64,000 nt of DNA from an uncultured Caryophanales bacterium. GTDB taxonomy: Bacteria > Bacillota_I > Bacilli_A > RFN20 > CAG-288. The notes under the pieces were generated by a model. The model was not told where the DNA came from and made no database searches. It worked only from the letters and a program-made list of their open reading frames with translations. A program made the position numbers and the translations under genes. How positions within the stretch are numbered: position 1 is the first letter of the stretch; every line of letters begins with the position of its first letter. The DNA is taken from the NCBI GenBank assembly GCA_949287425.1, contig CASEGJ010000010.1, positions 1 to 64,000 on the forward strand, written 5' to 3'. Of this stretch, positions 9,716-56,077 are shown piece after piece.

Positions 9716-9733
9716 TAAGGAGGCAAGTGAAAT

Positions 9734-10716: not shown

Positions 10717-10719
10717 TAT

Positions 10720-11148: not shown

Positions 11149-11149
11149 T

Positions 11150-13161: not shown

Positions 13162-13166
13162 TATTA

Positions 13167-14157: not shown

Positions 14158-14183
14158 TAATCTAGGAGGAAAAATTAAATACT

Positions 14184-14297: not shown

Positions 14298-14323
14298 TAT
14301 TTTTGAAAGGAATTTATTAAGAT

Positions 14324-14704: not shown

Positions 14705-14720
14705 TTAAGGAGCATGTAAA

Positions 14721-15128: not shown

Positions 15129-15147
15129 TAAATAAGGAGGGAAATAA

Positions 15148-16107: not shown

Positions 16108-16120
16108 GGAGACTATATAA

Positions 16121-16525: not shown

Positions 16526-16540
16526 TTAAAATCTATTTAT

Positions 16541-16572
16541 AGCTAGCATCATACTAAGGTGCTAGCTTTTTT
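16541..16572 (+). terminator. Intrinsic terminator of the ribosomal superoperon
   Basis: AGCTAGCATC (16541-16550) pairs with GGTGCTAGCT (16558-16567) with one G-U pair and a 7-nt loop. A T-run follows at 16567-16572. It lies 15 nt after rplQ. Confidence 0.9.
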
Positions 16573-16574
16573 AG

Positions 16575-16580
16575 TATAAT
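16575..16580 (+). promoter_or_regulatory. -10 box of sdaA, near-leaderless
   Basis: TATAAT stands 10 nt before ATG 16591, directly behind the superoperon terminator. Transcription would start about 3-4 nt before the ATG, so the mRNA would have almost no leader, and no SD is present. No clear -35 is seen; the terminator hairpin occupies that region. Confidence 0.55.
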
Positions 16581-16590
16581 TATTTTGTAT

Positions 16591-17811: not shown

Positions 17812-17838
17812 TAAAAAAAGATGTTAATTATAACATCT
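17812..17838 (-). terminator. Terminator of tRNA-Thr
   Basis: An 8-bp perfect stem, AGATGTTA (17819-17826) / TAACATCT (17831-17838), has a 4-nt loop. On the minus strand it is followed by a run of T (A-run 17813-17819 on plus). The base of the stem reaches the encoded CCA end of the tRNA. Confidence 0.8.
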
Positions 17839-17911
17839 GGTGCCGCTTGGTCGAATCGAACGGCCAATGGAGGTTTACGATACCTCTGTTTTACCATTAA
17901 ACTAAAGCGGC
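17838..17911 (-). tRNA. tRNA-Thr (anticodon CGU)
   Basis: A cloverleaf can be folded on the minus strand. Acceptor GCCGCTT pairs with AAGCGGC. The D arm contains TAATGGTAAAA. Anticodon stem GAGGT/ACCTC encloses loop ATCGTAA (anticodon CGT, reading ACG). The T loop is TTCGATT and CCA is encoded. The T stem GGCCG/CGACC carries a C-A mismatch in the middle pair. G1-C72, C2-G71, G35 and U36 agree with threonine identity. Confidence 0.9.
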
Positions 17912-17925
17912 GTCTAGTTAATTTT

Positions 17926-17931
17926 ATTATA
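17926..17931 (-). promoter_or_regulatory. -10 box of tRNA-Thr
   Basis: TATAAT on the minus strand (ATTATA on plus) lies about 14 nt before the tRNA 5' end. A weak TTTATT is 16 nt further upstream. Confidence 0.45.
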
Positions 17932-17948
17932 TTGATATTACTTTTTCA

Positions 17949-17979
17949 ATAAAAAAGGAAGGCTAGTTAAACCTTCCTT
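17949..17979 (-). terminator. Terminator of mscL
   Basis: AAGGAAGG (17955-17962) pairs with CCTTCCTT (17972-17979) around a 9-nt loop. On the minus strand it is followed by a T-run. It lies just after the mscL stop. Confidence 0.85.
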
Positions 17980-17997
17980 AAATGCGATAAATTTTAA

Positions 17998-18771
17998 TTA
18001 TTTACCTTGTTTTTCTAACAACTCTTTAATAGCTTTTAAGGTATCGAGTTGCTCTTGCTTCATATTTTCTTCTTTTTCTAAAGCGAGTTTAGCTTGGTTA
18101 GCAGCTTCAGCATCTTTAGCTTGTTTTTCTAATTCAGCTTTCTTGGCATTATAAGCATCTTCATACATAAATCCAGATTTAAGTTGCATTTGAGCTTCAT
18201 AGTTCTTTCTTTTAGCTTGTAAATAAGTGAAGACTTTTAAAATGACAAATAAAGTTAAAGCAATAATTAAGAAGGAAATTACAGCGTTGATAAATGCACC
18301 CCAATTAATGGTGGCAGATTGATTGTAGACATAGGTAGTTCCATAAAGAGAATATTTAGATAAAATAGTAGTCTTCATAGATTCAATGATAGCAGCAGTA
18401 GGATTAGCATCACCATATAAAGAAACAGCGTAGGCTTTAGCTAAATCTTGTAAGTCGGCAGCTTGGAAAGTTTGACCTAAACCAGTAGCAGCGCTTAAAC
18501 CTTTTTGAGAATTATTTAAAGCAGGTAAGACAGTAATTAATCCAGATAAACCACCTGGGACAGACCAAGTACAAACAGAAAGTAAGATGTTAGTAACAGA
18601 AGTAACAATGCTACCAAAGGCAGCACCCATGATAACACCAACAGCCATGTCAACGACGTTACCTCTAGTAATAAAACTCTTAAATTCTTTTACTAGTTTT
18701 GATTGCTTTTTAATTTTTAGATTGTTAGGATTAGCAGGATCATTAACAACTTCAGTTTTCTTTTCTTCCAT
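17998..18771 (-). CDS. mscL: Large-conductance mechanosensitive channel MscL, enlarged
   Basis: MscL is a membrane channel that releases solutes on hypo-osmotic shock. The signature TM1 segment ([20 protein letters not shown], residues 33-52) is well conserved. TM2 ([20 protein letters not shown]) is at about residues 149-168. The protein is 257 residues, whereas usual MscL is 120-150. The loop between TM1 and TM2 has grown to ~90 residues (normally ~25-40). The C-terminal helix is replaced by an ~80-residue charged, heptad-like tail that looks like a coiled coil. There is also an N-terminal cytoplasmic extension of ~28 residues. Start at ATG 18771, chosen because GAAAGGA stands 8 nt upstream; an earlier in-frame start lacks an SD. 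It is monocistronic with its own terminator. Confidence 0.9.
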
Positions 18772-22888: not shown

Positions 22889-24103
22889 ATGAATCAAAAT
22901 CTTTTAAAAGTTATAAAGCAAAATTTAAATACTTATTTAAAATCGACACCGATAACTTCATTTTTATATGTTTTGTTAGCCTTTGTATTGTTTTCTGCAG
23001 TGTTGTTAGTTAACACTATAAATTTCAATATTAGCAATTATTTTTTAAATTTGTTTCTTTCTTTCGTTTTAACTTTTATCTTTATCTTTGCAATTTTTTA
23101 TGTCGTTTGTCCTATTTTATATGCTTGCAGCTTACAAAATAGTGAAGTGTCTCGTTTTTCTAATAAGAAAATATCATTAAAAGCAGCTTTTATTAATTAT
23201 TATAATTTCAACAAGAATCCATTTAGAATTTTTAATGTTTTTTTATTTGCTATACTTTTTTCATTGTTAGGTAGTATTGTTAGTAATTTGATTATTATTT
23301 TACTAGAAGTTAGTATTTCTCCTGATATGTATTCAGCTTATTTAAATTTGACTAATGATATTTCAAGCCAGGAAGCTTTTTTAGAAACTTACGGAGATTT
23401 ATTTTATAGATATAATTCGCTATATATGTCTTTATCTTTTGTTGCTCCTGCAATCTATGTTTTATATTCACTTAGAAAAAATGAATCTACCTTTTATGTC
23501 AGCAATATTTTGTTAACTGATAATAAAATTAATACACTTTCTAGCCAATTTACTGTACTTTTAAGAAAAGGTGTCATTTCTAATGTCAGCAAAGAACATT
23601 TTCAATTAGATATATCTGTTAACTATATAGGATATATCGTTTTGTTTGTCGTTTATTTTGGGTTGTCAATAGGCTTGTTATTCATTCAAGGTATGGCTTA
23701 TGAATTTATTCCGTTTATTGCTGTTATAGCTAGTTTATTGTTATACGTGCCTTTTTATGTAAAAGAAAGGTTGTTTGATATTTTATTTTATACCGCTTAC
23801 TCTGATTTGATGTTAAAAAGAGTTTCTCCGAGTTTGAAAATTATTTTAGCTCAAGCCAAAACAGCCTATTATGCTAAATATGATTTAAATAGAGAAAACG
23901 ACGAGGATGAAAAAGCTACTTATCAAGAAGTTAAAGAAAATGAAAGTAGTGCTAAAGATGATTCAAATAATTCGTCTCAAAGCCAAGTAGAAAGTAAACC
24001 TTTAGATAAGGATGCTCCTAAAAAAGGTGAATTAGATCAAGAAGGTATTATTGATTTTACTAAATCTGAAGATGAAGACGATTCTTCTAATAATAAAAAG
24101 TAA
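22889..24103 (+). CDS. Polytopic membrane protein with acidic C-terminal tail (unknown)
   Basis: A 404-residue protein with about six hydrophobic segments (near residues 24-45, 50-75, 112-138, 180-195, 250-270 and 275-292). An amphipathic region follows, then a ~65-residue tail of Glu, Asp, Ser and Lys (from about NRENDEDEKAT). It has a good SD (GGAGG). I recognise no family. The layout (multi-TM plus charged cytoplasmic tail) suggests an integral membrane scaffold or a YihY/DUF975-like protein, but no decisive motif is seen. It lies downstream of the NERD-like gene and may be co-transcribed with it. Confidence 0.7.
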   Translation: MNQNLLKVIKQNLNTYLKSTPITSFLYVLLAFVLFSAVLLVNTINFNISNYFLNLFLSFVLTFIFIFAIFYVVCPILYACSLQNSEVSRFSNKKISLKAAFINYYNFNKNPFRIFNVFLFAILFSLLGSIVSNLIIILLEVSISPDMYSAYLNLTNDISSQEAFLETYGDLFYRYNSLYMSLSFVAPAIYVLYSLRKNESTFYVSNILLTDNKINTLSSQFTVLLRKGVISNVSKEHFQLDISVNYIGYIVLFVVYFGLSIGLLFIQGMAYEFIPFIAVIASLLLYVPFYVKERLFDILFYTAYSDLMLKRVSPSLKIILAQAKTAYYAKYDLNRENDEDEKATYQEVKENESSAKDDSNNSSQSQVESKPLDKDAPKKGELDQEGIIDFTKSEDEDDSSNNKK

Positions 24104-34099: not shown

Positions 34100-35968
34100 T
34101 TATTTAATTACTGATATGTAAATGTCGATATTTAAGTCTTCACTAGGGCAAATGGTAGGAAGATTGATAATTTGTGATTCACTTTTTACTAGATTTAATT
34201 GATAATCTTTAGCGTTTTCTAAATTATATGATTGACCATAAATGATTATATTTGAATCAGTGAATGAAATTGTATCTTCTAAAATAGTTTCATTTTGATA
34301 ATTTGAATATGTTCCAGAAGCGATAAATTCAGTTTCATCGGTATCTATATTAGCAATATATAAAGAATAATTGATATTTATTTTTTTGCTAATTACACAA
34401 GCAAATGAATTAGAAGGATTGATTTCACATGAAATTGGGTAATTGAAATACACTTTTTGATTATTTTCATTTAAATAATATTGATTTGTAACTTTATATA
34501 AATCAGGAGAAGTTACGTTTAATGTACTATTAACATAATTATTAATTTCAGTTTCAACATCAGTACTAACTGTATTAAAAGCTTTAGTTTGATAATTTGA
34601 TATTAAATTAGAAAGAGAATTGTCGTAAGGATCTTCAAATGAAAAAGTTAAATCTAAATAATTTTCAAAATCGAGATATATTTTTAAATCTGAATTAATT
34701 TGATAATTAGAGTAGTTATCTATTGGTACAACGTTATCATCTGCATCGTAAAAATAGAAATAATTGAAATGTCTATTTGATAATTGTTGTTGTTCGATGT
34801 AATTAGATATTGTTAAATTATTATCAATAAATACATCCATTAAATTAAATGTTTGCTCAGGTTTAGAGTAAAAAAATGTAATTAATGTATCATTATCGTA
34901 GATTTCAACGCAATATTTATTACCTAATTTTGGATAGAGAGTAATATCGCCATCTCCTTTTGGCATTATATGATTATTTTCAAAAAATGGAGTATCTAAA
35001 AATTCGCCATTTTCGTCATGTTCATACCATGAGATAAAATAGTGAAAATTAGTGTCTAACAAGGTAGATGAAGATAGACTAGGAGCTTGAATACTATCAC
35101 CAGGGAAACAAGTTATATCGTCTATATAAATATCATTATCGTAGATAGATGTATCAAAATGAATAGTGCGCTTTGATACAAAATCGGCGTATAAAGTAAA
35201 TGAAGTCTCAGGCATAGTAGTATCTAAATTAAATGTGTCTGTATATTCATCGGAAGTAGACCAACCATAAAATTTAAAATCTTCACCTTTATCTAATTTA
35301 GAATCATCAATAATTTGTTTTTCTATAAGAGTATTTAATATATTATCGCCAGGTCTAATTGAAACATCGGGAATTTGGTATGATTCAATATTAGTAACAA
35401 AGCTAATTGTTGGATATAAAGTAAAAGAAGGAATCAATGTAATGTCTTCACTAGGATAAAATTTAGTAGAGAATTTTTCACCAGTATCTTTATTAACCCA
35501 GCCTGAAAATGAATAACCTGGTTTATCAGGGATGGGGAATTCACCATCAATTTCTTCTCCTTCAACACCTTCAAAAAAATAAATATCGTTTTCAGAACTA
35601 GGATAGCTAGCATCATTATCTGATTTTTCCAAACTTATGCTTACGTGATTTGCAAAAAAACCATAGAATATTTTTTCATCTTCCATTGGATAATATTTGA
35701 TATTGACTTTTTTTGTATAATCGATATCAGAATACCAACCTTTAAAAGTAGTGTTGTCTTTAGATTGATAACTAGTTAATTTAGTTAGGTTTTCACCATC
35801 GATTTTACTGCCTTTATTACCTGAAATTTCACCGATAGTAGTTTCTTCATCTTTTAAAATAATTTTAGATTGTTCGCTAAAAACATTTGGATTTTGGTTA
35901 CAGGAAACTAAGCAAAATAAACTGATAATAGCAAATGATAAAAAGGACAGCTTAGAAATTCGTTTCAT
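34100..35968 (-). CDS. Lipoprotein with InlB-type (Listeria-Bacteroides) repeats
   Basis: A signal peptide ends in the lipobox LVSC at residues 20-23, so the protein is probably lipid-anchored outside the cytoplasm. Four repeats of the beta-grasp InlB B/Flg_new type lie within about residues 50-370. Each has F.GW or a similar Trp core (FKGWYSDIDY, FSGWVNKDTG, FYGWSTSDEY, FISWYEHDEN). The remaining ~250 residues show no recognised domain. Length 622. The start ATG 35968 has TATACT ending 7 nt upstream and no SD. The role is unknown; similar repeats occur in surface adhesins of gut bacteria. Confidence 0.82.
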   Translation of the reverse strand: MKRISKLSFLSFAIISLFCLVSCNQNPNVFSEQSKIILKDEETTIGEISGNKGSKIDGENLTKLTSYQSKDNTTFKGWYSDIDYTKKVNIKYYPMEDEKIFYGFFANHVSISLEKSDNDASYPSSENDIYFFEGVEGEEIDGEFPIPDKPGYSFSGWVNKDTGEKFSTKFYPSEDITLIPSFTLYPTISFVTNIESYQIPDVSIRPGDNILNTLIEKQIIDDSKLDKGEDFKFYGWSTSDEYTDTFNLDTTMPETSFTLYADFVSKRTIHFDTSIYDNDIYIDDITCFPGDSIQAPSLSSSTLLDTNFHYFISWYEHDENGEFLDTPFFENNHIMPKGDGDITLYPKLGNKYCVEIYDNDTLITFFYSKPEQTFNLMDVFIDNNLTISNYIEQQQLSNRHFNYFYFYDADDNVVPIDNYSNYQINSDLKIYLDFENYLDLTFSFEDPYDNSLSNLISNYQTKAFNTVSTDVETEINNYVNSTLNVTSPDLYKVTNQYYLNENNQKVYFNYPISCEINPSNSFACVISKKININYSLYIANIDTDETEFIASGTYSNYQNETILEDTISFTDSNIIIYGQSYNLENAKDYQLNLVKSESQIINLPTICPSEDLNIDIYISVIK

Positions 35969-36589: not shown

Positions 36590-36901
36590 TTATTTGTTTT
36601 GATCGATGATTTCTTGTAATTCTTGACTTCCTCTATATCCGATAAATTTATCGACTTCTTGACCACTTTTGAAGATGTTAACCTGAGGAATAGAATAAAC
36701 ACCATATTTACTGGCTAATTCTGGAAAAGTATCAACATTTACTTTTAATACTTTTAAATCGGGATTTTTTTCATCTAATTCTTCAAAAATTTGTCCAAGC
36801 ATTCTACATGGATTACACCAATCGGCATAAAAATCGACATATGTTGTACCTGTTGAAATTTCATTTTGAAAGTCGTTAATATTTTTTAAATAAACAATCA
36901 T
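36590..36901 (-). CDS. trxA: Thioredoxin
   Basis: A 103-residue thioredoxin with the active site WCNPC (about residues 28-32) and the cis-Pro loop YGVYSIPQVNIFKSG. It reduces disulfides in cytoplasmic proteins. It has an SD (GGAGG) and its own promoter at 36923-36951. A GCGTTAA/TTAACGC palindrome at about 36536-36551 lies between its stop and tRNA-Gly. It could be a weak terminator, but the T-run is poor. Confidence 0.96.
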   Translation of the reverse strand: MIVYLKNINDFQNEISTGTTYVDFYADWCNPCRMLGQIFEELDEKNPDLKVLKVNVDTFPELASKYGVYSIPQVNIFKSGQEVDKFIGYRGSQELQEIIDQNK

Positions 36902-36962: not shown

Positions 36963-37793
36963 TTAAATAAAATATGAAATTATATAAAAGATTAAAATAT
37001 GCAATGGATAATATATGTAGAAAGAATATTTTAATATCTTGTTACTATAGCCTAATTTTCCATTATATAAAAGGATAAAAACAGCTGATAATACACCATA
37101 TGATTGAATTGCAAAAGATAAAGTGTTCTCAACTGGATATTGATTTAGTTGATACATATCTATAAGCATCAAAATTAAATATGAAGTTAACATAAATATG
37201 CAGGCGAGGATATTTATTTTGCTTTGAAGATAATTCGCTTTATACAATTGGATAGTTTCATTAGAAAATCCCGAGCTTTTCCCGACGTATTCTGCATATT
37301 TTTCCGCGACTAATTGAGCTAAAAAGAAAGAGACAAATAGCAAAGCAGATAATAAGCCATCATCCATTCTTATTGGAAAAAATGAAAAGCTAGAAAGAGC
37401 TAAAATCGATAGTGGAATAATAGAAACAAGTGAAAGTAAATTTCTTTTATTTAAAAAATAAACAGCAAAAACACCTAACGATAAACTAGTTAATGCGTTT
37501 CCATAATACATGTTTCTATCATAAATAACCATGCAAGCATCGATTAAAACACCAACAATAAGCAATCTTATCGCATAGATAATCGGTTTATGCGATTTTA
37601 AAGCACCCTGTGTGCTTAAAAAGCAAAATATAGGCATTGCTAAACGTCCAATTATTCGAAGAATTTCATATGCAAAAGTAGGCTCAGGAATAAAAAATAA
37701 ACCTATGTGATCTATTGTCATTAAAATTATTGCAATAATCTTTAGTGAAAAATTATCCAAAATTTTTAAATTGATATTTTTAATATTAGACAT
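36963..37793 (-). CDS. TraX-family membrane protein
   Basis: A 276-residue protein with about eight hydrophobic segments. The N-terminal LKIIAIILMTIDHIGLFFIP and RIIGRLAMPIFCFLSTQG are characteristic of the TraX family (named for F-pilin acetylation). In Bacillota these proteins are found without conjugation genes and are probably membrane acyltransferases of unknown substrate. The start overlaps the CPBP gene by 8 nt, so the two form an operon on the minus strand. No conjugation genes are near. Confidence 0.85.
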   Translation of the reverse strand: MSNIKNINLKILDNFSLKIIAIILMTIDHIGLFFIPEPTFAYEILRIIGRLAMPIFCFLSTQGALKSHKPIIYAIRLLIVGVLIDACMVIYDRNMYYGNALTSLSLGVFAVYFLNKRNLLSLVSIIPLSILALSSFSFFPIRMDDGLLSALLFVSFFLAQLVAEKYAEYVGKSSGFSNETIQLYKANYLQSKINILACIFMLTSYLILMLIDMYQLNQYPVENTLSFAIQSYGVLSAVFILLYNGKLGYSNKILKYSFYIYYPLHILIFYIISYFI

Positions 37794-38607
37794 TAATTAA
37801 ATTCTCCAATAGCAAAATAATTGTACTAATTAAATTAACCATGAAATGCATGCTGATTGATTCAGTGACTAAATGGTGCTTTTTATATGCTAAAGATAGT
37901 GCGATGCCCGCTAATAAATAAGCGGGGAAATTTAATAGTTCATTAATTAGTAAGTCAGTAGAAAAATCCAGGCATATTCCTATAATATCAACATGAATTA
38001 AGCTAAAAATTAACGCGGTTAAAATAATAGCGAGATTTTCATTTTTTCGAGAAAGGACTTCATATAATCCTTGGCGATAAGTTAATTCTTCACAAATTGG
38101 GGCGAGAATTACTGTAGTTATCACTATGGGAATTGGATTAACTGATAAAAGAGTTTCAATTGTCGATTGATTGTTATTAGGACTTAATTGAATATTTCCA
38201 AGATTAATAATTACTTGTTGGAGTATTGAATATGCAAAATTTAATAGATAATATAACCCAAGAAAAATAATCGCAGTTTGGAAAGTCGATGCCTGTTTAA
38301 ACGTTTTGATTTTTCTAATAAAACCATCGCGATCAAATAAATAAAAACAAGAGACAATTATCGCAAATAAAACTAGATAAACTGCCATTTGAAAGTAAGC
38401 CTGTAAAGAAATATTAGCATTAAATTCTTCAATACCGACAAACGATAGAAAAATAAGCTCAACTAAATAGCCAATAGCTTGGAAACCTAGCCAACCAATT
38501 AAAAATAAAATAATACAAGAAGTGTTTGATAAAGAATATAGAGTTTTATGTTTATCAGGTGGTAAATTGAATTTATCTTTTCCGTATATTTGCATAATTG
38601 ATTCCAA
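37786..38607 (-). CDS. CPBP-family intramembrane protease
   Basis: A 273-residue polytopic membrane protein with the CPBP/ABI motifs: EELTYR (EExxxR) in ICEELTYRQGLYEVL, FSLIHVD, and HFMVN (HxxxN-like). These form the presumed glutamyl/metal protease site of the Rce1 family. The start is uncertain. TTG 38607 lies 8 nt after a TATAAT (38616-38621, minus strand), which would fit a leaderless mRNA. ATG 38595 in the same frame would give 269 residues. Target unknown. Confidence 0.82.
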   Translation of the reverse strand: MESIMQIYGKDKFNLPPDKHKTLYSLSNTSCIILFLIGWLGFQAIGYLVELIFLSFVGIEEFNANISLQAYFQMAVYLVLFAIIVSCFYLFDRDGFIRKIKTFKQASTFQTAIIFLGLYYLLNFAYSILQQVIINLGNIQLSPNNNQSTIETLLSVNPIPIVITTVILAPICEELTYRQGLYEVLSRKNENLAIILTALIFSLIHVDIIGICLDFSTDLLINELLNFPAYLLAGIALSLAYKKHHLVTESISMHFMVNLISTIILLLENLINV

Positions 38608-38731
38608 TAATCATGATTATAATAATTTATCGACTTAAAAGAAAGTTAAAATTTATGTTTATTATTTCTAGATAGTATTATATATATAATATGTTTTTTT
38701 GTATAATAAAATAAGCTACAGGGAGGAGAAA

Positions 38732-41700
38732 ATGATGTTGATACTTGCTGATTTACAACAAATATTAAATTACGTCAATTGGAACTACCTTTTCTTGTTT
38801 TTGCTATTAGGTACGCTAATAGGAGGGATTTGGGCCTTATTTAGAGGTATTTATAGGACTACCTGTAAATATATCGTTGAAGGTATTTTAATCGTCATAC
38901 TTGTTTTATGTATGCCTGGAATTGTTAATCAACTCACTTCATTAGATTTTAGTCAGTGGTTCAATTATTCAATACAAATTCAACCAGCACAAGGTGAATT
39001 AGTCAGTGTTCAATTTACAAGTGTCGATAAGACTATTGTCGATATAATAAACGCTTTAGGTTTAATTGAATCAACATCTAATCCTGCTTTATATCAAACG
39101 GCTATAGGATTAGTTCATTCTGCTCTCGGCTTAGTTTTATTGATAGTCGGCATGATTTTGGTAGTAATTATTACACCAGTATTAACTTGGCTAATCTATT
39201 TAGTGACTTTTGTTGTTTTTGTTTCGAAAGATAGAAGAAAAAATAAAAAACACAGATTGTTATCTGGACTTGAAGGAGCGATATGTGGAACTTTAATTGC
39301 GGCAATGTTTATTTCGCCATTATCTTCAATGCTATCACTTGCGTCACAAGCAGCAGATGAAATTAATAAGTCAACTACTCAAGATGGAACTTCGACAATT
39401 GAAAATAAAGATTTCCAAGCCATTTTGAATTTATTGGCTTCATATAATGATTCTGCCTATTATTCAACTATTTCATTTGGCAATTCTGATCCATCTTCTG
39501 TATTAGATAATAAGTTAATGACTCAAGTTACTGAAACGACGATTAATGGAGTAAATACATCAATATATGATGAATTAGGTTCTTTAATTAATTTGTTAAC
39601 TTCACTTTCCGATGCTTTTACTTTTAGTGATGAAACTGGTAATTTAACTGTTTCTATCGATTATGATAAATTAGTTTTGCCCGAAACTATTTCTAGTGCT
39701 TTAGATAGCATTACAACGTGGAAAACAATCATGTATATTGTTCCTGCTTTAGCAGAAATTGGTTTTAATATTTTAGATGGTCAAACATCTACTGATATGT
39801 TGGATTCAGTTGATTTATCTAACGTTAATTGGAATGACACTATTTCTAATATAAAAGAAATTTATTATCAATTGTATCAAACTGGTTTAATTGATTCATA
39901 TTTAGTTCCGATGTTAGAAGGAGATAAAAATTCTAGTTTTAAAATTGATTTTACTAAGAGAGAAAATTATAAAAAAGCAGTTTTATTGGTTGTAAATAGC
40001 GATTTAATAAAGAATAATCTGCCAAATATTTTAGCTAATGCAGCTCGTTCGATGAATGTAGATTACATATCTAGTTTGTCATATAAGTATGCCAATTTAA
40101 ATTACGATAATCTCTTTTCAAATATAATTGATTTCATTTTTTATAGTTTAGAGTTTTTAGATATTGATACATTATCTAACGATGTTTCATGGTCATCTAT
40201 TATCGATACTATATTTGAAAGATTATCTAATCCAGATAATACAAATAATGTTAAAGTGTTAATTTGTGGCGGACAATTAATTCTAAATAATTCGCAGACT
40301 GGAGAAGTTGATACATATGATTATGACGGTTTGTTATCAATTGATTTGTTTTCGAAAGAAAAAGGCATTGTTGATGTTTCTCAAATGCTAGTTGATGTTG
40401 CTGCTCAAATAGAAGGTATTAACGAATATATTAGTGATGACGATTTAGTTTATATCGGTAATTTTATTTCTGATTCTGATAAGTTGAAAGATGAAATTGG
40501 TTATGTTATCGATGTTTCTTCATCGATTTTAACACTTAATGATTTAATTGAACAAAATGGTAATAAGATTGATTTTTCTAATCAAGAAGTAATCGATTGC
40601 ATGAATGAATTATTAGATCAAGCTCAAAAGACTCAATTAATTTCGAAGATAATGCCAAATGTAATTGAAAATTTGCTTTCCAATCAATTAGAATTGAACC
40701 AAACTTTGTTTGGCTTAAAAATTTATGATTTAGATTTTGAACCAGTTGATAGTTCAAATAACCCAATTTTTATAACTGAAATGAAAAAAATCATTGAAAT
40801 TTTACCAGACATTGATGAATTGTCTAAATTAGTAAATGATAGTGATTCTTCAACAAGTGAGCTTTTAAAGAAGTTAGATTTAGTTAAATTGGAAAATATA
40901 TTAAATGTTATTTTAGAAAATAAAATACTTAACCCAGTTAAAAATCTTTCAGGTGGTAATGGGGAAGTTTATCAAGTTAATAATTACAATTTTAATACTT
41001 TGTTAAAAGGTATATTTAACTCTTCTAATTTTTCAAATTCAGGATTTTATTTACCTGAAGATTTATCTAATATAACTTGGTTAGGCGAGAATGGAGAAGT
41101 TAAAAATTTAATTAGGGTTTTGGAATTTGCTAAAGAAAATTCCTACTTGTTTGAAAATAAGAATTTGACAATTAACGATATTCCAGCTGGGGCAATAAGT
41201 ACACTCTTTTCATTAGTTAATTCTTCATCGCTTTTAAAAAGTAGCTTACCAAGCATTTTACAAACTAATTTATCCAGTAGTTTATCTGGATTAGGTGTTA
41301 GCGTTAATTTTTATGCTATTACTAATTGGGAAAAAGAAGGGCAAGCATTTGAGGAAGTTATCGCTAATTTAAAAAATTTACCGAGCACTGATTTTTCACA
41401 AATAGATTGGTTCTCACTCGATGCTAATCAAGTTAATAACTTATTAGTATCTTTAGCAAAGATGGAATTGTTTGGTATTCAAAAAGATAATTCTGGTCGC
41501 ACTATTGATAAGTTTGGAAATTTGGTTTATTACATATTATCTAAATCCAACGATATTAAAGAGATTCTTGGCGATGGTTTTTCTATTGATAATTTTTCTA
41601 GAGTAGATCAAAATGGTCAAATTAAATCAGGTTTTGAAAATTGGTATGGTCAATTAGTCGATGGCGAATATAGTTTAGTTGACGAAGATGGTGAGATAAC

Positions 41701-43885
41701 TATCATTAATTCTCAAATTGATAGCGATGGTGAAATTTCAAAAATCGCTAATTTATTTGACTTAGTTAAGCAGACTAGAATTAACGAATTTGATTTTGAT
41801 TATTCTAAAGATTTAACACCAGCAATATTTGACGAAATGTTAACTTGTATAAATTCATCTAAAGTATTAAATACTTGTCTAGCTTCTATTATTAACTATG
41901 CTAGTGAAAAAGTCGGAAGTGTTTATATAGGTACTATCGATAATGAAGATCAATATATGGATTTTGATTCTTTAGATTCTAGTTTGTTATATCAAATGAC
42001 TCAGCAAGAAAGAGAAAAAGAAATTGATTGTTTAGTTGAAATATATGAATTTATTTATAATAGACAAGTTGAGACATTTAAAAACATTTTAAGAAGTGAT
42101 GGTACTATCGGAGTAAGTCAAGCGCAAATTGGTATTATTGAAAATCTTTTAAACTCTTTAGTTAATTTAAAAATGGCAAATAGTATAAAACAAGGGTATT
42201 CAATTTCGCTATTTGACGATTGTATTTCTAAATTGCTAAATCTTTCAAGTATCGATCAAATTATTACTAATGCGAGTGATGCTAAAACTGCAAAGATTAT
42301 GATGCTACCATATATCAATCAGATAAGTCGCAATACTTCGCTAGAATTTACTTGGAAATTTTCGTGTTCAAGTCAAGATGTAGATGATTCAGCAACTTCT
42401 GAAAGATACAATTATGTAATTAGCAATAAAACTTCTCAAATTTTAGCAATCACAAAACTAATTAGATATGCTAGAGCCAACAATTTAAAGATTGACTTTA
42501 CTTCAAATTTAAGTGATATAAATAGTATTACAGGTGATAATTTGCATTTTATCTTAACTAGTTTTAATGAGTCTTATTTATTTCACAGCGGAGTTTCTAG
42601 ATTATTTAAAGTCATGTTTGAAAATTTATCTTTTGATAAGTATTTAGTTGATGGGTATGGTAATCAATTAGTCTTAGATTTTAACACTCATACTAAATTT
42701 GATGCTAATTTAGTTGATAGCAATCAAATAGAAGGTGAAAATATTGAGTATTGGCAAAGAAATATAGATTCTTTGGTTGATTTATATTCTTCATTGATTG
42801 ATTTAATAGAGGAAGGGGAATTAAACTTAGATAATATTCAAATTGGTATTGGAGAAGGTAAAATAGCTAGTTATGATATAATTTCACCTTTATCTAAGAT
42901 GCCATTATTCAATCAAAAACGCGAATATTTAATTTATAATTTATTAATTAATAATCAGAGTGTTGACTTTAATATTCAATCGTATATTAGACCATATCCA
43001 AATATTGTTAGTGATGATGAAGCTGTGATATTTGAAATGAAAGTTGCTAGAATTAGAAATCTCTTATTTAAAGACGGCATAGATGATAGTGAGGTTAAGA
43101 TACAATGTAATATTTTAGATAATATGGTAACTTATGCTGATAAATTAACTAACGTTAGTTTTGAAGGTGATTCTATATTAAATATTGATAATCAGGAAGT
43201 TAATTTATCTGATTATATTTACGATATTATTATGTCAAGTTTTAGTTATCAAGTAAGTAATAATCAACTTGTTTCATATCAAAGAGGATATTTATCTCAA
43301 GAAATTCTATCTAATATTATCGTCGATACTTTAAGTAAAATATTGCCTGATAATTTAGAATTACAATCGTTATTTTTCAAACAAGAAGGCTCAGTATTTG
43401 ATGTGGATTATCGTTATTTAAATCCAATTGAAGCTAACGGAATTAAAGGTTTAATTAAATTGTCTTCTTTCGATAGTGAATATTTTGCTGATTCTAATAA
43501 TAAATCTAATAATTATAAAGAATTTGCTGACGCAATATCATTACTAGGCCGCAATATAGAAAAGGAAGATAAATTCGTTTATCCAGGAACTAGTAATGAT
43601 GATATAGTTTTCTTAGGAAATTTTGAAAATGATTTAACTTTGAAAAAATATTTTGCTAAAAATCAGCCAAATCAACGATTAGTTAATTCGCGTTTAGCCA
43701 TTATTTTATTTGAAAATTATGCTAGTAAAGTTATTTTAGGTGAATATCAAGGTCAACAGATTAATTTATCTCAAGCGATAGATGTTATTAATAGTCTTTC
43801 ATCTAGTAAAATTGATTTTGAAAATACGCCATTTGAAGATTCAGCAGATGCTATAGTTCAATTTATCATTTCAATTAATAGTTAA
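38732..43885 (+). CDS. Giant membrane-anchored protein: CvpA-like N-terminus plus degenerate ~200-residue repeats
   Basis: A 1717-residue protein with an SD GGAGG at 38722-38726; ATG 38735 is an equally good start. The first ~200 residues hold four hydrophobic segments (about 12-33, 40-62, 122-160 and 170-195). A loop of basic residues before the last one, KHRLLSGLEGAICGTLIA, recalls the CvpA/colicin V production fold. The remaining ~1500 residues are polar, acidic, rich in Asn, Ser, Asp, Ile and Leu, and have no membrane segment. By eye they contain at least six copies of a short helix motif about 200-240 residues apart, at roughly 423 (SDLIKNNLPNILANAAR), 634 (TQLISKIMPNVIENLLS), 831 (SSLLKSSLPSILQTNLS), 1043 (SKVLNTCLASIINYASE), 1280 (SYLFHSGVSRLFKVMFE) and 1522. 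Function unknown. The next gene starts 1 nt after its stop. Confidence 0.8.
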   Translation: MMLILADLQQILNYVNWNYLFLFLLLGTLIGGIWALFRGIYRTTCKYIVEGILIVILVLCMPGIVNQLTSLDFSQWFNYSIQIQPAQGELVSVQFTSVDKTIVDIINALGLIESTSNPALYQTAIGLVHSALGLVLLIVGMILVVIITPVLTWLIYLVTFVVFVSKDRRKNKKHRLLSGLEGAICGTLIAAMFISPLSSMLSLASQAADEINKSTTQDGTSTIENKDFQAILNLLASYNDSAYYSTISFGNSDPSSVLDNKLMTQVTETTINGVNTSIYDELGSLINLLTSLSDAFTFSDETGNLTVSIDYDKLVLPETISSALDSITTWKTIMYIVPALAEIGFNILDGQTSTDMLDSVDLSNVNWNDTISNIKEIYYQLYQTGLIDSYLVPMLEGDKNSSFKIDFTKRENYKKAVLLVVNSDLIKNNLPNILANAARSMNVDYISSLSYKYANLNYDNLFSNIIDFIFYSLEFLDIDTLSNDVSWSSIIDTIFERLSNPDNTNNVKVLICGGQLILNNSQTGEVDTYDYDGLLSIDLFSKEKGIVDVSQMLVDVAAQIEGINEYISDDDLVYIGNFISDSDKLKDEIGYVIDVSSSILTLNDLIEQNGNKIDFSNQEVIDCMNELLDQAQKTQLISKIMPNVIENLLSNQLELNQTLFGLKIYDLDFEPVDSSNNPIFITEMKKIIEILPDIDELSKLVNDSDSSTSELLKKLDLVKLENILNVILENKILNPVKNLSGGNGEVYQVNNYNFNTLLKGIFNSSNFSNSGFYLPEDLSNITWLGENGEVKNLIRVLEFAKENSYLFENKNLTINDIPAGAISTLFSLVNSSSLLKSSLPSILQTNLSSSLSGLGVSVNFYAITNWEKEGQAFEEVIANLKNLPSTDFSQIDWFSLDANQVNNLLVSLAKMELFGIQKDNSGRTIDKFGNLVYYILSKSNDIKEILGDGFSIDNFSRVDQNGQIKSGFENWYGQLVDGEYSLVDEDGEITIINSQIDSDGEISKIANLFDLVKQTRINEFDFDYSKDLTPAIFDEMLTCINSSKVLNTCLASIINYASEKVGSVYIGTIDNEDQYMDFDSLDSSLLYQMTQQEREKEIDCLVEIYEFIYNRQVETFKNILRSDGTIGVSQAQIGIIENLLNSLVNLKMANSIKQGYSISLFDDCISKLLNLSSIDQIITNASDAKTAKIMMLPYINQISRNTSLEFTWKFSCSSQDVDDSATSERYNYVISNKTSQILAITKLIRYARANNLKIDFTSNLSDINSITGDNLHFILTSFNESYLFHSGVSRLFKVMFENLSFDKYLVDGYGNQLVLDFNTHTKFDANLVDSNQIEGENIEYWQRNIDSLVDLYSSLIDLIEEGELNLDNIQIGIGEGKIASYDIISPLSKMPLFNQKREYLIYNLLINNQSVDFNIQSYIRPYPNIVSDDEAVIFEMKVARIRNLLFKDGIDDSEVKIQCNILDNMVTYADKLTNVSFEGDSILNIDNQEVNLSDYIYDIIMSSFSYQVSNNQLVSYQRGYLSQEILSNIIVDTLSKILPDNLELQSLFFKQEGSVFDVDYRYLNPIEANGIKGLIKLSSFDSEYFADSNNKSNNYKEFADAISLLGRNIEKEDKFVYPGTSNDDIVFLGNFENDLTLKKYFAKNQPNQRLVNSRLAIILFENYASKVILGEYQGQQINLSQAIDVINSLSSSKIDFENTPFEDSADAIVQFIISINS

Positions 43886-43886: not shown

Positions 43887-44453
43887 ATGTATGTAATTAA
43901 AAGAAATTTAACTTCGCAAATTGAAGTTAAAAAAAGCAAATTTATAACGTATATCTTTCAAGTTGATTCTAAAAATGTTGTAAAAGAGAAATTAAATTTT
44001 ATTAAACAAGAGCATTTACAGGCTAAACATATTTTATATTGTTATTTATTGAAAGATAATTCCATGGAAGCAAGTGAAAATAAAGAACCGATATCAAGCA
44101 TGCATAAATGTTTAGATTTATTGACTAAGAAAGACTTAAAAAACATTTTGTGTATAGTTGTTAGATATTTTGGCGGAATTGAATTAGGCGCTAGCAATTT
44201 AGATAGGACTTATATTAATTGCATTTTCAATTTGCTAACAGATGATAATATTCAACAAGAGGTAGTTTACTATGAATATTATATAAAGTTTAAAAACAGT
44301 TATTATGCTTTAATTAAAAAAAGATTGGAAGTTGCTAATGCTAAAATTTTAGAAAGGGAATTTAATTTAGATTTAGTCAATATAAAATTAAAAATTTCAC
44401 ATTTACCTGATGATATTTTGCCGTATTTAATTCAGGTAAAAAAGATATTGTAG
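43887..44453 (+). CDS. IMPACT/YigZ-family protein, divergent
   Basis: A 188-residue product with the YigZ-IMPACT fold pattern: SKFITYIFQVDS, then HLQAKHILYCYLL, then the landmark VVRYFGGIELGASNLDRTY. In typical members the corresponding segments read DGEP and RYFGGxxLGxGGLxRAY; here they are ENKEP and ASNLDRTY. IMPACT proteins are linked to translation under stress; the bacterial function is unknown. It starts 1 nt after the giant protein gene without a clear SD, suggesting coupled translation. Confidence 0.82.
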   Translation: MYVIKRNLTSQIEVKKSKFITYIFQVDSKNVVKEKLNFIKQEHLQAKHILYCYLLKDNSMEASENKEPISSMHKCLDLLTKKDLKNILCIVVRYFGGIELGASNLDRTYINCIFNLLTDDNIQQEVVYYEYYIKFKNSYYALIKKRLEVANAKILEREFNLDLVNIKLKISHLPDDILPYLIQVKKIL

Positions 44454-49384: not shown

Positions 49385-50344
49385 TTAATCTAGTAATAAA
49401 GAATATATATTAGTTATTTCATCTATTTCTTCTTGGCTATTATGTTCATATCTAATAGCCTTTTTAATTTGGCTATTTTCATAGTAGATTAAACTTGGGA
49501 CCCAGCCATTAATGTTTTCTGAGTTTAGTCCAAATTCGGATTGAAATTCATTCCATATACTGGGATTTTCATTTTTTTGTTGTCTAAAATATGAAGTTTC
49601 AAAGCAATATATTTCACCAGAGTAATTTTTAGAAAATTCAAAAAGGAAATTGGAATAAAGGTTTGCACAATCAATACAGCGATTCCAAACAAAAAAGACG
49701 GCAATTTTTCTTTTGGAATTGATAAATTCTTTTAATTGTGAATAGCTGGTGTAATCGATAGATACAAAATTAGAATCGTTATTAGTTGATGAAGTTATAT
49801 TGTTTAAATAGTAGATTCTTTCATCAGAAAAAAAGCGATGTAATGCAATGGTAAAATAGTCTAACGATTGATAATATGAATCGACTAATGGATTAACTTG
49901 GGCATTAACCTTACCATCTTTATTTGAATAATAAATAAAAGTTGGATAACTAGCTATATATGGGAAATAGCTGTTGTAGTTTGAGTCTTTAGAATATATA
50001 TCATAAAGTTCATTTTTATAAGTAGTATAGTTAATTCCATAAATTAAAACATTATCCTGTTTAGCTAATTGAGCGATATAATATTCAACATTTTGACAAG
50101 TTTGACAATCCAATGAATAAATCATAACTAAAAAATTATTGCTACTTGAATGATTTGATGATAAAAGGGTAACTTTATCTAGATATTCTTGGCTAGTTAG
50201 ATTAACTAAGCTAGTTACAAATTTATTTCTAGGTAAAAAATTTTTACCAACATAGCTTTCAACTTCGCTGATACTACATGAATTTAAAGCAAGTAAACTT
50301 GTGCTAATTAAAGATAATTTTAATGATTTTTTAATTAATTTCAC
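49385..50344 (-). CDS. Lipoprotein with two thioredoxin-like CxxC domains
   Basis: The signal peptide ends with the lipobox LNSC at residues 20-23, so the protein is probably anchored outside the membrane. Two separate thioredoxin-type segments follow: YSLDCQTCQNVEYYI (CQTC, about residues 76-79) and FVWNRCIDCANLYSNF (CIDC, about residues 223-226). Each is preceded by a beta-strand-like hydrophobic stretch. It may handle disulfides of exported proteins, but no partner is seen nearby. Start GTG 50344: TAAAAT ends 6 nt upstream and there is no SD, suggesting a leaderless mRNA. It converges on the ABC-F gene with 2 nt between. Confidence 0.72.
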   Translation of the reverse strand: MKLIKKSLKLSLISTSLLALNSCSISEVESYVGKNFLPRNKFVTSLVNLTSQEYLDKVTLLSSNHSSSNNFLVMIYSLDCQTCQNVEYYIAQLAKQDNVLIYGINYTTYKNELYDIYSKDSNYNSYFPYIASYPTFIYYSNKDGKVNAQVNPLVDSYYQSLDYFTIALHRFFSDERIYYLNNITSSTNNDSNFVSIDYTSYSQLKEFINSKRKIAVFFVWNRCIDCANLYSNFLFEFSKNYSGEIYCFETSYFRQQKNENPSIWNEFQSEFGLNSENINGWVPSLIYYENSQIKKAIRYEHNSQEEIDEITNIYSLLLD

Positions 50345-51723: not shown

Positions 51724-53655
51724 ATGGATTTAAAATGGTTTGATGACTATCTTATGGGTAATTCACATGATGCTTATAAGCATTTTGGCGCCCATTTTGC
51801 TAAAGATGCTGATGGCAATTCTGGAGTTGAATTTTTAGTTTATGCTCCTAGAGCTAGACAAATCAATGTGTTAGGTGATTTTAACAATTTTTCTATTTAT
51901 GGTTCTTTGATGGAGAAAATTGATTATCGCGGATTGTTTAGATATTTTGCTAAAGGTGCTAAAAATTATCAATCATATAAATTACATATTCAAAAAGCAG
52001 ATGGTCATTGGGTTGAAAAATCTGATCCATTTGCCTTTTTTAATGAACTTAGACCATCGATGTATTCACGCGTCTTTGATTTGAATGACTTTGTTTTTCA
52101 CGATGATGAATTTATGAGTAATCGCGATAGGGGATTTGATAAGCCAATTAGTATATATGAGCTCCATCTTGGTTCCTGGAAAGGCAGAAAAGCAGATGGG
52201 ACTTTCTATTCATATGAAGAAATGGCTGATATGCTAATTCCATATTTGTTAGAAAATGAATTTACTCATATTGAGTTAATGCCAGTAACTCAATATCCTT
52301 ACGATGGTTCTTGGGGCTATCAACCAACAGGTTATTTTTCAATCGATTCTCGTTATGGTAATCCAAAACAACTTATGTCGTTTGTCGATAGAATGCATCA
52401 AGCGGGAATTTCAGTTTTGTTAGATTTCGTTCCTGTTCATTTTGCAACTGATAATTATGGCTTAGGCGATTTTGATGGCTCTAAAGTCTATGAATATGAT
52501 AATGAAAATGAATATTCTCAGTGGGGAACTAAGAACTTCGATTTAGGTAAAGATCCTGTTAGAAGTTTTCTAATTTCTTCAATGTGTTACTTTTTAGAAG
52601 TTTACCATTTTGATGGGGTTAGATTTGATGCAGTTAGCAATATCATTTACTATGATGGAAATTCTTCTAGAGGAACTAATCAAGGTGGTATTGATTTTTT
52701 AAAAAGAGCTAACTGGACTGTCCATGAGTTTTATAAAGGTGCGATAACTATCGCTGAAGATTCTTCTTCATATGGTTTAGTTACTAAAGGCTTTTCAAAT
52801 CAAGGGTTAGGTTTTGACTATAAATGGGATTTAGGTTGGATGAACGACACTTTAAAATATTATAAACTCGATCCTGTTTATAAGCGCTTTAATCATAACT
52901 TAATTACATTTTCTATGATGTATTTTTATTCTGAAAACTTTATCTTGCCGTTATCTCACGATGAAGTTGTTCACATGAAAGGCTCAATTTTGAATAAGAT
53001 GTGGGGAGATCAATATCAAAAATTCGCCCTAGTTAGAAATCTTTACGCCTATCAGTTTGCCCATCCTGGGAAAAAACTTAACTTTATGGGAAATGAATTA
53101 GCTACTTGGGATGAATGGTCTGAAAAGAAGTCGTTGTCTTGGAATTTAACTTCTTTTCCAAGTCACGATTCTGTCAAACGCTTATTTAGAGATTTAAATA
53201 GAGTTTATAAAAACCACAGGTGTATGTATTATCAAGAATATAATCCAGATCATTTTAAATGGATTAAAGTTGATGACGCCGATCAATCTGTCTTTGTTTT
53301 TAAAAGAGAAGTTGAAGATGAAGTCATGTTGTTTGTTTTTAATATGACACCTAATTTTTATCCGGAATTTAGAATTGGTGTACCATATCGAGGTATCTAT
53401 GAAGAAGTTTTAAATACTGATAAAGATGTTTATGGTGGTTCGAATCAATATAATGGTGGAGAAATAATTAGTGATGATACTTTAGCTGATTATTGCTATA
53501 ATTCAATAGTGATTAAATTAGCTAGCTTTGCAGCTTGTTATTTAAAGTTGGTTAAAAAGGTGCCTTATGTCGAGCCTAAAAAGAAGAAAATCACAAAAAA
53601 GAAGGTGGAAAAAGTTACTGCTAAGCAAGTTAAAACTAAGAAAGGTGGAAAATAA
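51724..53655 (+). CDS. glgB: 1,4-alpha-glucan branching enzyme
   Basis: Introduces alpha-1,6 branches into glycogen. An N-terminal CBM48-type domain (about residues 25-110) precedes the GH13 catalytic barrel. The nucleophile is Asp in VRFDAVSN, the acid/base Glu is in TIAEDSS, and the third acidic residue is in LPLSHDEVVH. The C-terminal ~35 residues are lysine-rich and probably disordered. Length 643. glgP follows after 4 nt. The synthase (glgA) and pyrophosphorylase (glgC) genes are not in the window. Confidence 0.95.
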   Translation: MDLKWFDDYLMGNSHDAYKHFGAHFAKDADGNSGVEFLVYAPRARQINVLGDFNNFSIYGSLMEKIDYRGLFRYFAKGAKNYQSYKLHIQKADGHWVEKSDPFAFFNELRPSMYSRVFDLNDFVFHDDEFMSNRDRGFDKPISIYELHLGSWKGRKADGTFYSYEEMADMLIPYLLENEFTHIELMPVTQYPYDGSWGYQPTGYFSIDSRYGNPKQLMSFVDRMHQAGISVLLDFVPVHFATDNYGLGDFDGSKVYEYDNENEYSQWGTKNFDLGKDPVRSFLISSMCYFLEVYHFDGVRFDAVSNIIYYDGNSSRGTNQGGIDFLKRANWTVHEFYKGAITIAEDSSSYGLVTKGFSNQGLGFDYKWDLGWMNDTLKYYKLDPVYKRFNHNLITFSMMYFYSENFILPLSHDEVVHMKGSILNKMWGDQYQKFALVRNLYAYQFAHPGKKLNFMGNELATWDEWSEKKSLSWNLTSFPSHDSVKRLFRDLNRVYKNHRCMYYQEYNPDHFKWIKVDDADQSVFVFKREVEDEVMLFVFNMTPNFYPEFRIGVPYRGIYEEVLNTDKDVYGGSNQYNGGEIISDDTLADYCYNSIVIKLASFAACYLKLVKKVPYVEPKKKKITKKKVEKVTAKQVKTKKGGK

Positions 53656-53659
53656 AAAG

Positions 53660-56077
53660 ATGCTATTTGATAACAAAAAGACATTTATTAAGGAATTTAC
53701 AACACGCGCTCAAGAAAAATTTGCTCATGAGCCTAGTGAAATGGATTCATTAGAAATCTATGATATCTTAGGTGGAATGGTTCGCGACTATATGACTAGT
53801 CAGCAAATGGTATGTAAAAAAGCTATCGTCAAAGAAAACACTAAGCAACTTATATATTTCTCAATGGAATTTTTAGTCGGTAGACTTTTACAAGCTAATA
53901 TGGTTAATTTAGGTATTAACGAAGTTGTTGAAAAAGGTCTAAAGGATTTAAATATCGATTTAGCAAATATAGTTGAACAAGAACCTGATGCTGGTTTAGG
54001 AAATGGTGGCTTAGGTAGATTAGCTGCCTGCTTTATGGATTCAATCGCTTCTAATGGCTTAGTTGGACACGGAAATTGTTTAAGATACGACTATGGTTTC
54101 TTTAGACAAAAAATCAATCAGTATGGCGAACAAGAAGAATATCCAGATAACTGGTTATTAAATGGTTGCGTTTGGGAAATTAGAAAGCCTCAATTAGCGC
54201 AAAAAATTAAATTTTACGGTAGAGAAGAGACATATACCGATGTCGATGGTAATATTAAAAGAAGAACTGCCGATGCTATTAATGTATTAGCTATTCCATG
54301 TGATGTTTCTATCCCTGGTTATAAAAATGGCGTTGTCAACACTTTAAGATTATGGACAGCTGAACCATCTGTCGATGATTTGCCAAAAGGCGTTTCTTTT
54401 GATGATTATCTTCAATTTGTAAGAAACATCACTCATGGTCTTTATCCTGATGATAGAACTGAACAAGGAAAGATGCTTCGTTTACGTCAGCAATATTTCT
54501 TAGTTTCTGCTGGATTACAATCGACTTTGTTTTCTCATTATAAGCAGTTCCATACTTTTGATAATTTATCTGATTTTTACGTTTTCCATTTAAATGATAC
54601 TCATCCTATTTTAGCTATTCCTGAATTGATGAGATTGCTTATGGATGACTATTCATATACATGGGAAAAAGCTTATTCTATTTGTCAAAAATGCTTTGCT
54701 TTTACTAATCATACTATTATGCCAGAAGCTTTGGAAAAATGGCCTACTCAATATATTTCTTCTTTATTCCCACGCGTATATATGATTATTGAAGAAATCA
54801 ATAGAAGATTGTTAATCCAATATCGTGAAAATAATATTCCTCAAGAACAAATCGATAACGATATCATAATTAAAGATGGCATGATTAGAATGTGTCAATT
54901 AGCTATTAATGTCTGCTATTCTGTTAATGGTGTTGCTAAGATACATACTGAAATTTTAAAAGATCAAACTTTTAAAGATCTTTATACTATGTATCCAAAT
55001 AAATTTAATAATAAGACAAATGGAATTTCACATCGTCGTTTCTTATTGGTCGCTAATCCTGAATTAGGTAAATTTATTTCTGACCGCGTATCTGAAAATT
55101 GGGTTTTAGATCCCCAAACTTATTTACCTAAATTGCTCGATTATGTCGATGATGAAAAGTCATTAAAGAAACTTATTGAAATTAAAAAGCACAATAAGCA
55201 AAATCTCGTTAAATTTATCGAGAAGCACAACCATATAACTATCGATTCGAATTCAATTATCGATACACAAATTAAACGTCTTCACGCTTATAAACGTCAG
55301 TTAATGAACATTTTTAGAATTATTTATCTTTCTAAAAAATTAAAATCTGATCCTGATTTTACAATGCAGCCTCACACTTACATTTTTGGCGCTAAAGCTG
55401 CTCCAAGCTACTTATTAGCTAAAAAGATTATTGAATTGATAAATTGCGTTGCTAAGAAAATCAATTCTGATAAAAAATTATCTAAATATATTAAAGTAAT
55501 TTTTATTGAGAATTACGATGTTTCTAAAGCTATGAAAATCATTCCTGCCAGTGATGTTTCTGAACAGATTTCTCTTGCTGGTAAAGAAGCTAGTGGTACA
55601 TCAAATATGAAGTTTATGATGAATGGCGCTTTGACTTTAGGTACTTTAGATGGTGCTAACGTTGAAATTGCTGATTTAGTTGGACAAGAAAATTGCGTTA
55701 TTTTTGGTATGACTGAACCTGAAGTCAATCAATTGAGATATTCTAATTCATATTCTGCTATGGAAATTTATAATAGCGATAGTGAAATTAAAGAAGTTAT
55801 GGATTCATTAATTGATGGAAGCTTTGATCCTGATATAAATAGATTTAGAATGATATTCGATGATATCTATTATAAAGATGAGTTCTTTGTCTTAGCTGAT
55901 TTAAAGAGTTATATTCAAGCATCTTATAAAATTGACGAACTTTATAAAGATAAATTATCATGGGCTAAAAAGTGCTTAATTAATATTGCTAAATCTGGCT
56001 ATTTTAGTTCAGATCGTACTATTGATGAATATAATAAAGACATTTGGCATCTTCAAAAGCTCGATTTATCTAAATAA
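53660..56077 (+). CDS. glgP: Glycogen phosphorylase
   Basis: Releases glucose-1-phosphate from glycogen with PLP. The PLP-lysine motif is in EASGTSNMKFMMNGALTLGT (then LDGANVEI), near residues 639-666. The N-terminal GLGNGGLGRLAACFMDS and the glucan-binding IHTEILK are conserved. ATG 53660 gives 805 residues, the family length; an upstream extension inside glgB is spurious. GGTGG in the end of glgB may serve as SD. It is in an operon with glgB. Confidence 0.95.
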   Translation: MLFDNKKTFIKEFTTRAQEKFAHEPSEMDSLEIYDILGGMVRDYMTSQQMVCKKAIVKENTKQLIYFSMEFLVGRLLQANMVNLGINEVVEKGLKDLNIDLANIVEQEPDAGLGNGGLGRLAACFMDSIASNGLVGHGNCLRYDYGFFRQKINQYGEQEEYPDNWLLNGCVWEIRKPQLAQKIKFYGREETYTDVDGNIKRRTADAINVLAIPCDVSIPGYKNGVVNTLRLWTAEPSVDDLPKGVSFDDYLQFVRNITHGLYPDDRTEQGKMLRLRQQYFLVSAGLQSTLFSHYKQFHTFDNLSDFYVFHLNDTHPILAIPELMRLLMDDYSYTWEKAYSICQKCFAFTNHTIMPEALEKWPTQYISSLFPRVYMIIEEINRRLLIQYRENNIPQEQIDNDIIIKDGMIRMCQLAINVCYSVNGVAKIHTEILKDQTFKDLYTMYPNKFNNKTNGISHRRFLLVANPELGKFISDRVSENWVLDPQTYLPKLLDYVDDEKSLKKLIEIKKHNKQNLVKFIEKHNHITIDSNSIIDTQIKRLHAYKRQLMNIFRIIYLSKKLKSDPDFTMQPHTYIFGAKAAPSYLLAKKIIELINCVAKKINSDKKLSKYIKVIFIENYDVSKAMKIIPASDVSEQISLAGKEASGTSNMKFMMNGALTLGTLDGANVEIADLVGQENCVIFGMTEPEVNQLRYSNSYSAMEIYNSDSEIKEVMDSLIDGSFDPDINRFRMIFDDIYYKDEFFVLADLKSYIQASYKIDELYKDKLSWAKKCLINIAKSGYFSSDRTIDEYNKDIWHLQKLDLSK

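What the first reader, a model, noticed from the sequence alone, without database searches (positions are those of the whole stretch)
38732..43885. Giant CvpA-like anchor with at least six degenerate ~200-residue repeats
The 1717-residue product has four N-terminal membrane segments with a basic loop and a small-residue segment like CvpA, then ~1500 residues without any membrane segment. I see a short helix motif of the type S-x-L-(I/L)-x3-L-(P)-x-I-(I/L) recurring at about residues 423, 634, 831, 1043, 1280 and 1522, each followed some 60-90 residues later by an amphipathic stretch such as EIxxLVxIxxxI. The even spacing points to an old tandem duplication. I know of no family with this layout. 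Coupling to an IMPACT-type gene 1 nt downstream and closeness to mrp may hint at a role, but function is open. A large cell-envelope tether or surface rod is one possibility.
Basis: partly seen in the sequence, partly recalled or inferred. Interest (0 to 1): 0.78.

Follow-up and report, generated by a model that had tools for sequence, protein, structure and literature searches.

The report
Giant CvpA-anchored repeat protein, gut bacterium
A gut bacterium that probably has no cell wall carries a conserved gene for a very large protein that seems to be held in its membrane by a four-helix anchor of the CvpA type and to extend outside the cell as a long chain of repeated helical units; it belongs to a widespread family that no public domain library describes, with relatives in culturable Acholeplasma species where its role could be tested.

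Summary
The 1717-residue ORF is real, is preceded by a good ribosome-binding site and ends 1 nt before an IMPACT/YigZ gene. Its N-terminus is CvpA-like: the family profile matches genuine CvpA proteins at 93% probability (E 3e-7), against 0.1% and 1.8% for two unrelated membrane families, with four membrane segments. The positive-inside pattern (73 of 73 homologues scored) places the acidic tail outside the cell. The repeats are real: 122 of 946 profile-profile window comparisons reach E<1e-4, against none for reversed decoys. AlphaFold2 gives a confident, mostly helical chain; no solved structure matches significantly, but the best hits to the tail are alpha-solenoids (CRM1, CAND1). The gene is syntenic, is in all 23 genomes of its family and 149 of 279 of its order, and occurs elsewhere in the Bacilli, including two chromosomes whose lengths equal Acholeplasma brassicae and A. 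palmae. The window genome shows no peptidoglycan synthesis genes. Best reading: a CvpA-anchored extracytoplasmic surface scaffold. Function is untested.

The parts
38732..43885 (+). Complete gene of the giant CvpA-anchored repeat protein, 1717 aa
38721..38728 (+). Ribosome-binding site GGGAGGAG, 3 nt before the ATG
   Evidence: read directly
38732..39346 (+). CvpA-like membrane anchor, residues 1-205, four membrane segments with basic cytoplasmic loops
39554..39787 (+). Repeat unit 1, residues 275-352
39821..40057 (+). Repeat unit 2, residues 364-442
40478..40687 (+). Repeat unit 3, residues 583-652
40769..40954 (+). Repeat unit 4, residues 680-741
41090..41287 (+). Repeat unit 5, residues 787-852, type A
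41327..41557 (+). Repeat unit 6, residues 866-942, type B
41726..41914 (+). Repeat unit 7, residues 999-1061, type A
42014..42256 (+). Repeat unit 8, residues 1095-1175, type B
42431..42628 (+). Repeat unit 9, residues 1234-1299, type A
42749..42958 (+). Repeat unit 10, residues 1340-1409, type B
42959..43882 (+). C-terminal ~300 residues, helical, no significant repeat match
43887..44453 (+). IMPACT/YigZ (UPF0029) gene, 1 nt downstream; conserved neighbour
37786..38607 (-). CPBP (Rce1-like) membrane protease gene, divergent; conserved neighbour
36963..37793 (-). TraX-family membrane protein gene; conserved neighbour
36590..36901 (-). Thioredoxin gene; conserved neighbour

Best explanation
The gene encodes a membrane-anchored giant of the cell surface. 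A CvpA-type four-helix domain (N-out, C-out) holds it in the cytoplasmic membrane, and about 1500 residues of acidic, mostly helical sequence, made of at least ten ~100-residue units in alternating A/B types, project outward as an extended alpha-solenoid. In the window organism, which shows no peptidoglycan synthesis genes, this tail would lie directly on the cell surface. Its most likely job is structural: a surface scaffold, coat or tether that spaces, binds or organises other envelope or environmental partners, with length tuned by gain and loss of repeat units. Shown by computation: anchor similarity, repeats, helical model, vertical conservation. Inferred: extracytoplasmic side (positive-inside rule plus the MarP precedent), solenoid shape (non-significant fold matches), structural role (no enzyme family recognised).
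For: CvpA profile match at 93% probability, E 2.8e-7, against 0.1% and 1.8% for control membrane families. Loop charges: loop 1 net charge above loop 2 in 73/73 homologues; tail 7% K+R against 16% D+E on average; window tail net charge -110. Repeats 122/946 against 0/946 decoys. AlphaFold2 pLDDT 87.3 (residues 1-800) and 78.9 (570-1717), mostly helices. Best PDB fold matches of the tail are alpha-solenoids: CRM1, CAND1, neurofibromin. Longer homologues carry extra alternating units, e.g. 16 in a 2591-aa member. No PBP transpeptidase, MraY-type, Mur ligase or FtsW/RodA match in the 94%-complete genome. Gene in 23/23 genomes of the family. Tail diverges faster than neighbouring genes: mean identity 19-24% against 33-52%.
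Against: Fold matches are not significant (best E 2.6e-3, TM about 0.1), so the solenoid reading rests on helix content and the character of weak hits; pTM is only 0.59 for the C-terminal model. Topology is predicted, not measured. The gene does not track peptidoglycan loss in a consistent direction, so a wall-replacing role is not supported; 16 FtsW-positive genomes of the order have it too. No partner or ligand is known.
Confidence: 0.5

Rival explanations
1. The tail serves the CvpA domain: CvpA forms or regulates a membrane transport or stress-resistance unit (as for bile-salt resistance in enterics), and the helical tail is a receptor or filter that captures hydrophobic compounds such as bile acids or lipids outside the cell.
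For: cvpA is needed for deoxycholate resistance in EHEC, V. cholerae and V. parahaemolyticus (PMC6705877). The named close relatives are metagenome-assembled genomes, one of them called Scatoplasma merdavium; a gut host, where bile is present, is likely.
Against: The molecular role of CvpA is unknown. The window genome has a separate ordinary CvpA of 246 aa. Relatives in genomes that match Acholeplasma brassicae and A. palmae by length, named after plants, argue against a bile-specific role. No pocket analysis was possible.
Confidence: 0.15
2. The tail is an adhesin or interaction rod that binds host mucus or other cells, with repeats providing reach and the C-terminal ~300 residues binding.
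For: Acidic, fast-diverging, long, repeat number varies; distinct C-terminal segment without repeats.
Against: Single-copy, syntenic and present in all 23 genomes of the family, which is unusual for variable adhesins; no known adhesion domain in Pfam.
Confidence: 0.2
3. The topology is reversed and the tail is a cytoplasmic scaffold under the membrane.
For: Known HEAT-like solenoids are mostly cytoplasmic (own knowledge); there is no cleavable signal peptide to force export.
Against: Positive-inside pattern in 73/73 homologues; the similar MarP layout has its C-terminal domain in the periplasm (PMC4992679); acidic tail with few basic residues.
Confidence: 0.1

Closest known systems
CvpA / Colicin V production protein family (PF02674)
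   Same: Four membrane segments, glycine/basic motif (GLxxGxxK) between segments 1 and 2, basic cytoplasmic loop, small-residue last segment; profile match E 2.8e-7; 3 of 25 homologues hit PF02674.
   Different: CvpA proteins found here are 174-246 aa without a tail; the giant adds ~1500 residues and has a longer loop 2. The window protein alone is below Pfam's cut-off.
MarP (Rv3671c) of Mycobacterium tuberculosis
   Same: Four N-terminal membrane helices followed by an extracytoplasmic C-terminal domain (PMC4992679); the CvpA relationship of its N-terminus is from own knowledge.
   Different: MarP's C-terminal domain is a trypsin-like protease in a ~400-aa protein; here it is a ~1500-aa helical repeat array with no protease match.
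HEAT/ARM-type alpha-solenoids (CRM1, CAND1, neurofibromin)
   Same: Long helical arrays; best though non-significant Foldseek matches.
   Different: No sequence match to any HEAT/ARM Pfam family at E<=0.1 in 25 members; units of ~100 aa with beta hairpins; predicted extracytoplasmic; fold match E 2.6e-3, TM about 0.1.

Membership tests
CvpA / Colicin_V (PF02674) | Profile match over Pfam's gathering score | tested here: not met
   Window protein: no PF02674 match at E<=1. Some homologues do match, best 3e-6; the giant of relative G006 passes the cut-off with its neighbouring matches in the frame.
CvpA / Colicin_V (PF02674) | Homology of the four-helix domain by profile-profile comparison | tested here: met
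   hhalign 93.3%, E 2.8e-7 against CvpA proteins of the same order; control families 0.1% and 1.8%.
CvpA / Colicin_V (PF02674) | Four membrane segments with basic cytoplasmic loops | tested here: met
CvpA / Colicin_V (PF02674) | Small stand-alone protein | tested here: not met
   1717 aa; open frames in the wider family run from about 1000 to over 6000 aa.
MarP-type CvpA-anchored enzyme | C-terminal protease domain | tested here: not met
   No protease family in Pfam for the window protein or 24 homologues.
HEAT/ARM alpha-solenoid | Recognisable HEAT/ARM sequence repeats | tested here: not met
   No HEAT or ARM Pfam match at E<=0.1.
HEAT/ARM alpha-solenoid | Superhelical array of antiparallel helix pairs | tested here: inconclusive

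The most novel reading that the evidence does not exclude
This is an undescribed class of giant bacterial surface protein: CvpA-anchored extracytoplasmic alpha-solenoids, 1000 to over 6000 residues long, grown by duplication of a ~100-residue unit, that form a protein coat or exoskeleton-like scaffold on reduced, often wall-less Bacilli.
Probability: 0.3. Interest if true: 0.8.

Novelty: new variant of a known kind. Interest (0 to 1): 0.62.

Why it matters
CvpA is widespread, yet its molecular role is unknown. A family in which a CvpA-type domain carries a huge repeat tail gives a new handle on what that domain does, and suggests that gut Bacilli with no detectable peptidoglycan genes display a large protein array at the surface. 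Because relatives occur in genomes that match cultured Acholeplasma species, location and role can be tested directly. The repeat unit and its anchor are candidates for new Pfam entries.

Tried and rejected
1) Wall replacement: tested by comparing giants with FtsW/RodA. Outside the order giants are commoner in FtsW-negative genomes (44 of 67 giant-positive genomes lack FtsW against 84 of 189 giant-negative ones, Fisher p 0.004); inside the order the trend is reversed (p 0.04). Related genomes are not independent, so this is rejected as a specific claim. The 256 genomes outside the order are counted from handle numbers. 2) Functional operon with IMPACT/mrp: the block is conserved, but the neighbours are housekeeping or divergent, and in some genomes YigZ or Mrp lie further away. 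3) Known fold: no PDB hit at E<0.001 for either model and none among viral models. 4) Phage origin: no PHROG match. 5) Upstream TTG start at 38699: rejected in favour of the ATG at 38732 with its ribosome-binding site. 6) Promoter scan of the intergenic region: no more sites than in shuffles. 7) Literature searches for giant CvpA proteins found none. 8) MASE2 (E 0.07) and ExbB (E 0.09) hits are chance-level.

Full report
What was checked. The ORF at 38732-43885 is open for 1717 codons. The ATG at 38732 follows GGGAGGAG at 38721-38728, so the TTG at 38699 that makes the mechanical ORF longer is not needed. The stop ends at 43885 and the IMPACT/YigZ gene starts at 43887.

Anchor. Hydropathy gives four segments in residues 1-200 and none later. 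The window protein alone has no Pfam, NCBIfam or PDB match above chance, but 3 of 25 homologues match Colicin_V (PF02674), best 3e-6. A profile of residues 1-210 from 76 sequences against 13 ordinary CvpA proteins from the same order gives 93.3% probability and E 2.8e-7, while two unrelated membrane families from the same loci (TraX, CPBP) give 0.1% and 1.8%. The confident part of that alignment is segments 1-2; forced over the whole domain it pairs the later segments too. The window genome also has an ordinary 246-aa CvpA on another contig.

Topology. In 73 homologues with four clean segments, loop 1 always has a higher net charge than loop 2, loop 3 carries on average 9 K+R, and the tail averages 7% K+R and 16% D+E. 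This predicts N-out/C-out, with the tail outside. MarP has the same order of parts, with its C-terminal protease domain in the periplasm (PMC4992679).

Repeats. Profile windows of the tail compared with each other by hhalign give 122 of 946 pairs at E<1e-4; the same windows reversed give none, best 0.0032. Longer windows reach 1.3e-11 and line up residues 583, 787, 999 and 1234. Unit HMMs find ten to eleven units in the window protein; against 1091 domain hits at E<1e-3 in the real proteins, reversed sequences give 1 and shuffled ones 0. These counts include hits of each HMM to its own position; hits of one unit's HMM to a different unit of the window protein reach 3e-8. Longer homologues have more units, up to 16 in a 2591-aa member, still alternating.

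Structure. AlphaFold2 with 76 sequences gives mean pLDDT 87.3 and pTM 0.73 for residues 1-800, and with 26 sequences 78.9 and 0.59 for 570-1717. Both are mostly helical with a few beta hairpins. No PDB or viral fold match reaches E 0.001. The best tail hits are alpha-solenoids (CRM1, CAND1, neurofibromin), which suggests but does not prove that shape.

Distribution. The family is in all 23 genomes of the window's family, 149 of 279 genomes of the order and 67 of about 256 sampled genomes elsewhere in the class, with open frames up to 6056 aa. Not all weak matches outside the order cover the tail, and a few lie in short frames. The same-genus genome G001 is Candidatus Scatoplasma merdavium by contig. 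Two single-contig genomes have lengths 1,877,792 and 1,554,229 bp, exactly those published for Acholeplasma brassicae O502 and A. palmae J233 (PMC4221730); the first has 1215-aa and 3683-aa members and the second a 1629-aa member. The 1215-aa protein matches the window's unit HMMs (down to 4e-5), and the 3683-aa one has strong repeats of its own (2e-21). The naming rests on chromosome length alone.

Neighbourhood. In most of the order the gene sits between divergent CPBP, TraX and thioredoxin genes and a downstream YigZ gene. The tail is more divergent than these neighbours (mean identity 19-24% against 33-52%), as is common for exposed proteins.

Cell wall. The 94%-complete window genome has no match to FtsW/RodA, PBP transpeptidase, MraY-type or Mur ligase families, all of which ring in control genomes. 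Only 21 of 279 genomes of the order have FtsW/RodA over the cut-off. Published work predicts several related uncultured lineages of the Bacilli to lack peptidoglycan (PMC10868615). The giant, however, occurs in walled relatives too and shows no consistent link with wall loss.

Judgement. A CvpA-type membrane anchor carrying a long, acidic, extracytoplasmic array of helical repeats is well supported. That it is an alpha-solenoid is likely. That it is a surface scaffold or coat is the best single guess, held at about even odds against receptor, adhesin and other roles.

Noticed in passing
window genome, whole assembly (G000): No FtsW/RodA, PBP transpeptidase, MraY-type or Mur ligase matches in a 94%-complete genome: the organism probably makes no peptidoglycan.
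   Followed up: partly
34100-35968, - strand: 622-aa probable lipoprotein with Listeria-Bacteroides (InlB-type) repeats, another surface protein close to the giant gene.
   Followed up: no
49385-50344, - strand: 319-aa probable lipoprotein with CxxC motifs resembling a thioredoxin-like protein; no Pfam match at E<=1e-4.
   Followed up: no
116-1342 and 22889-24103, + strand: Two ORFs of 408 and 404 aa without any Pfam match at E<=1e-4.
   Followed up: no
L121 (G387:C7), 1-18147: Relative with an open frame of over 6000 aa in a genome that has FtsW; only three tail units recognised by the window's unit HMMs.
   Followed up: partly
L126:1044-12095 (genome matching A. brassicae by length): 3683-aa relative with its own strongly conserved internal repeats (self-hits down to 2e-21), possibly a recent expansion.
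   Followed up: partly
51724-56077, + strand: Glycogen branching enzyme-like and glycogen phosphorylase genes side by side, overlapping, pointing to glycogen use in this small genome.
   Followed up: no
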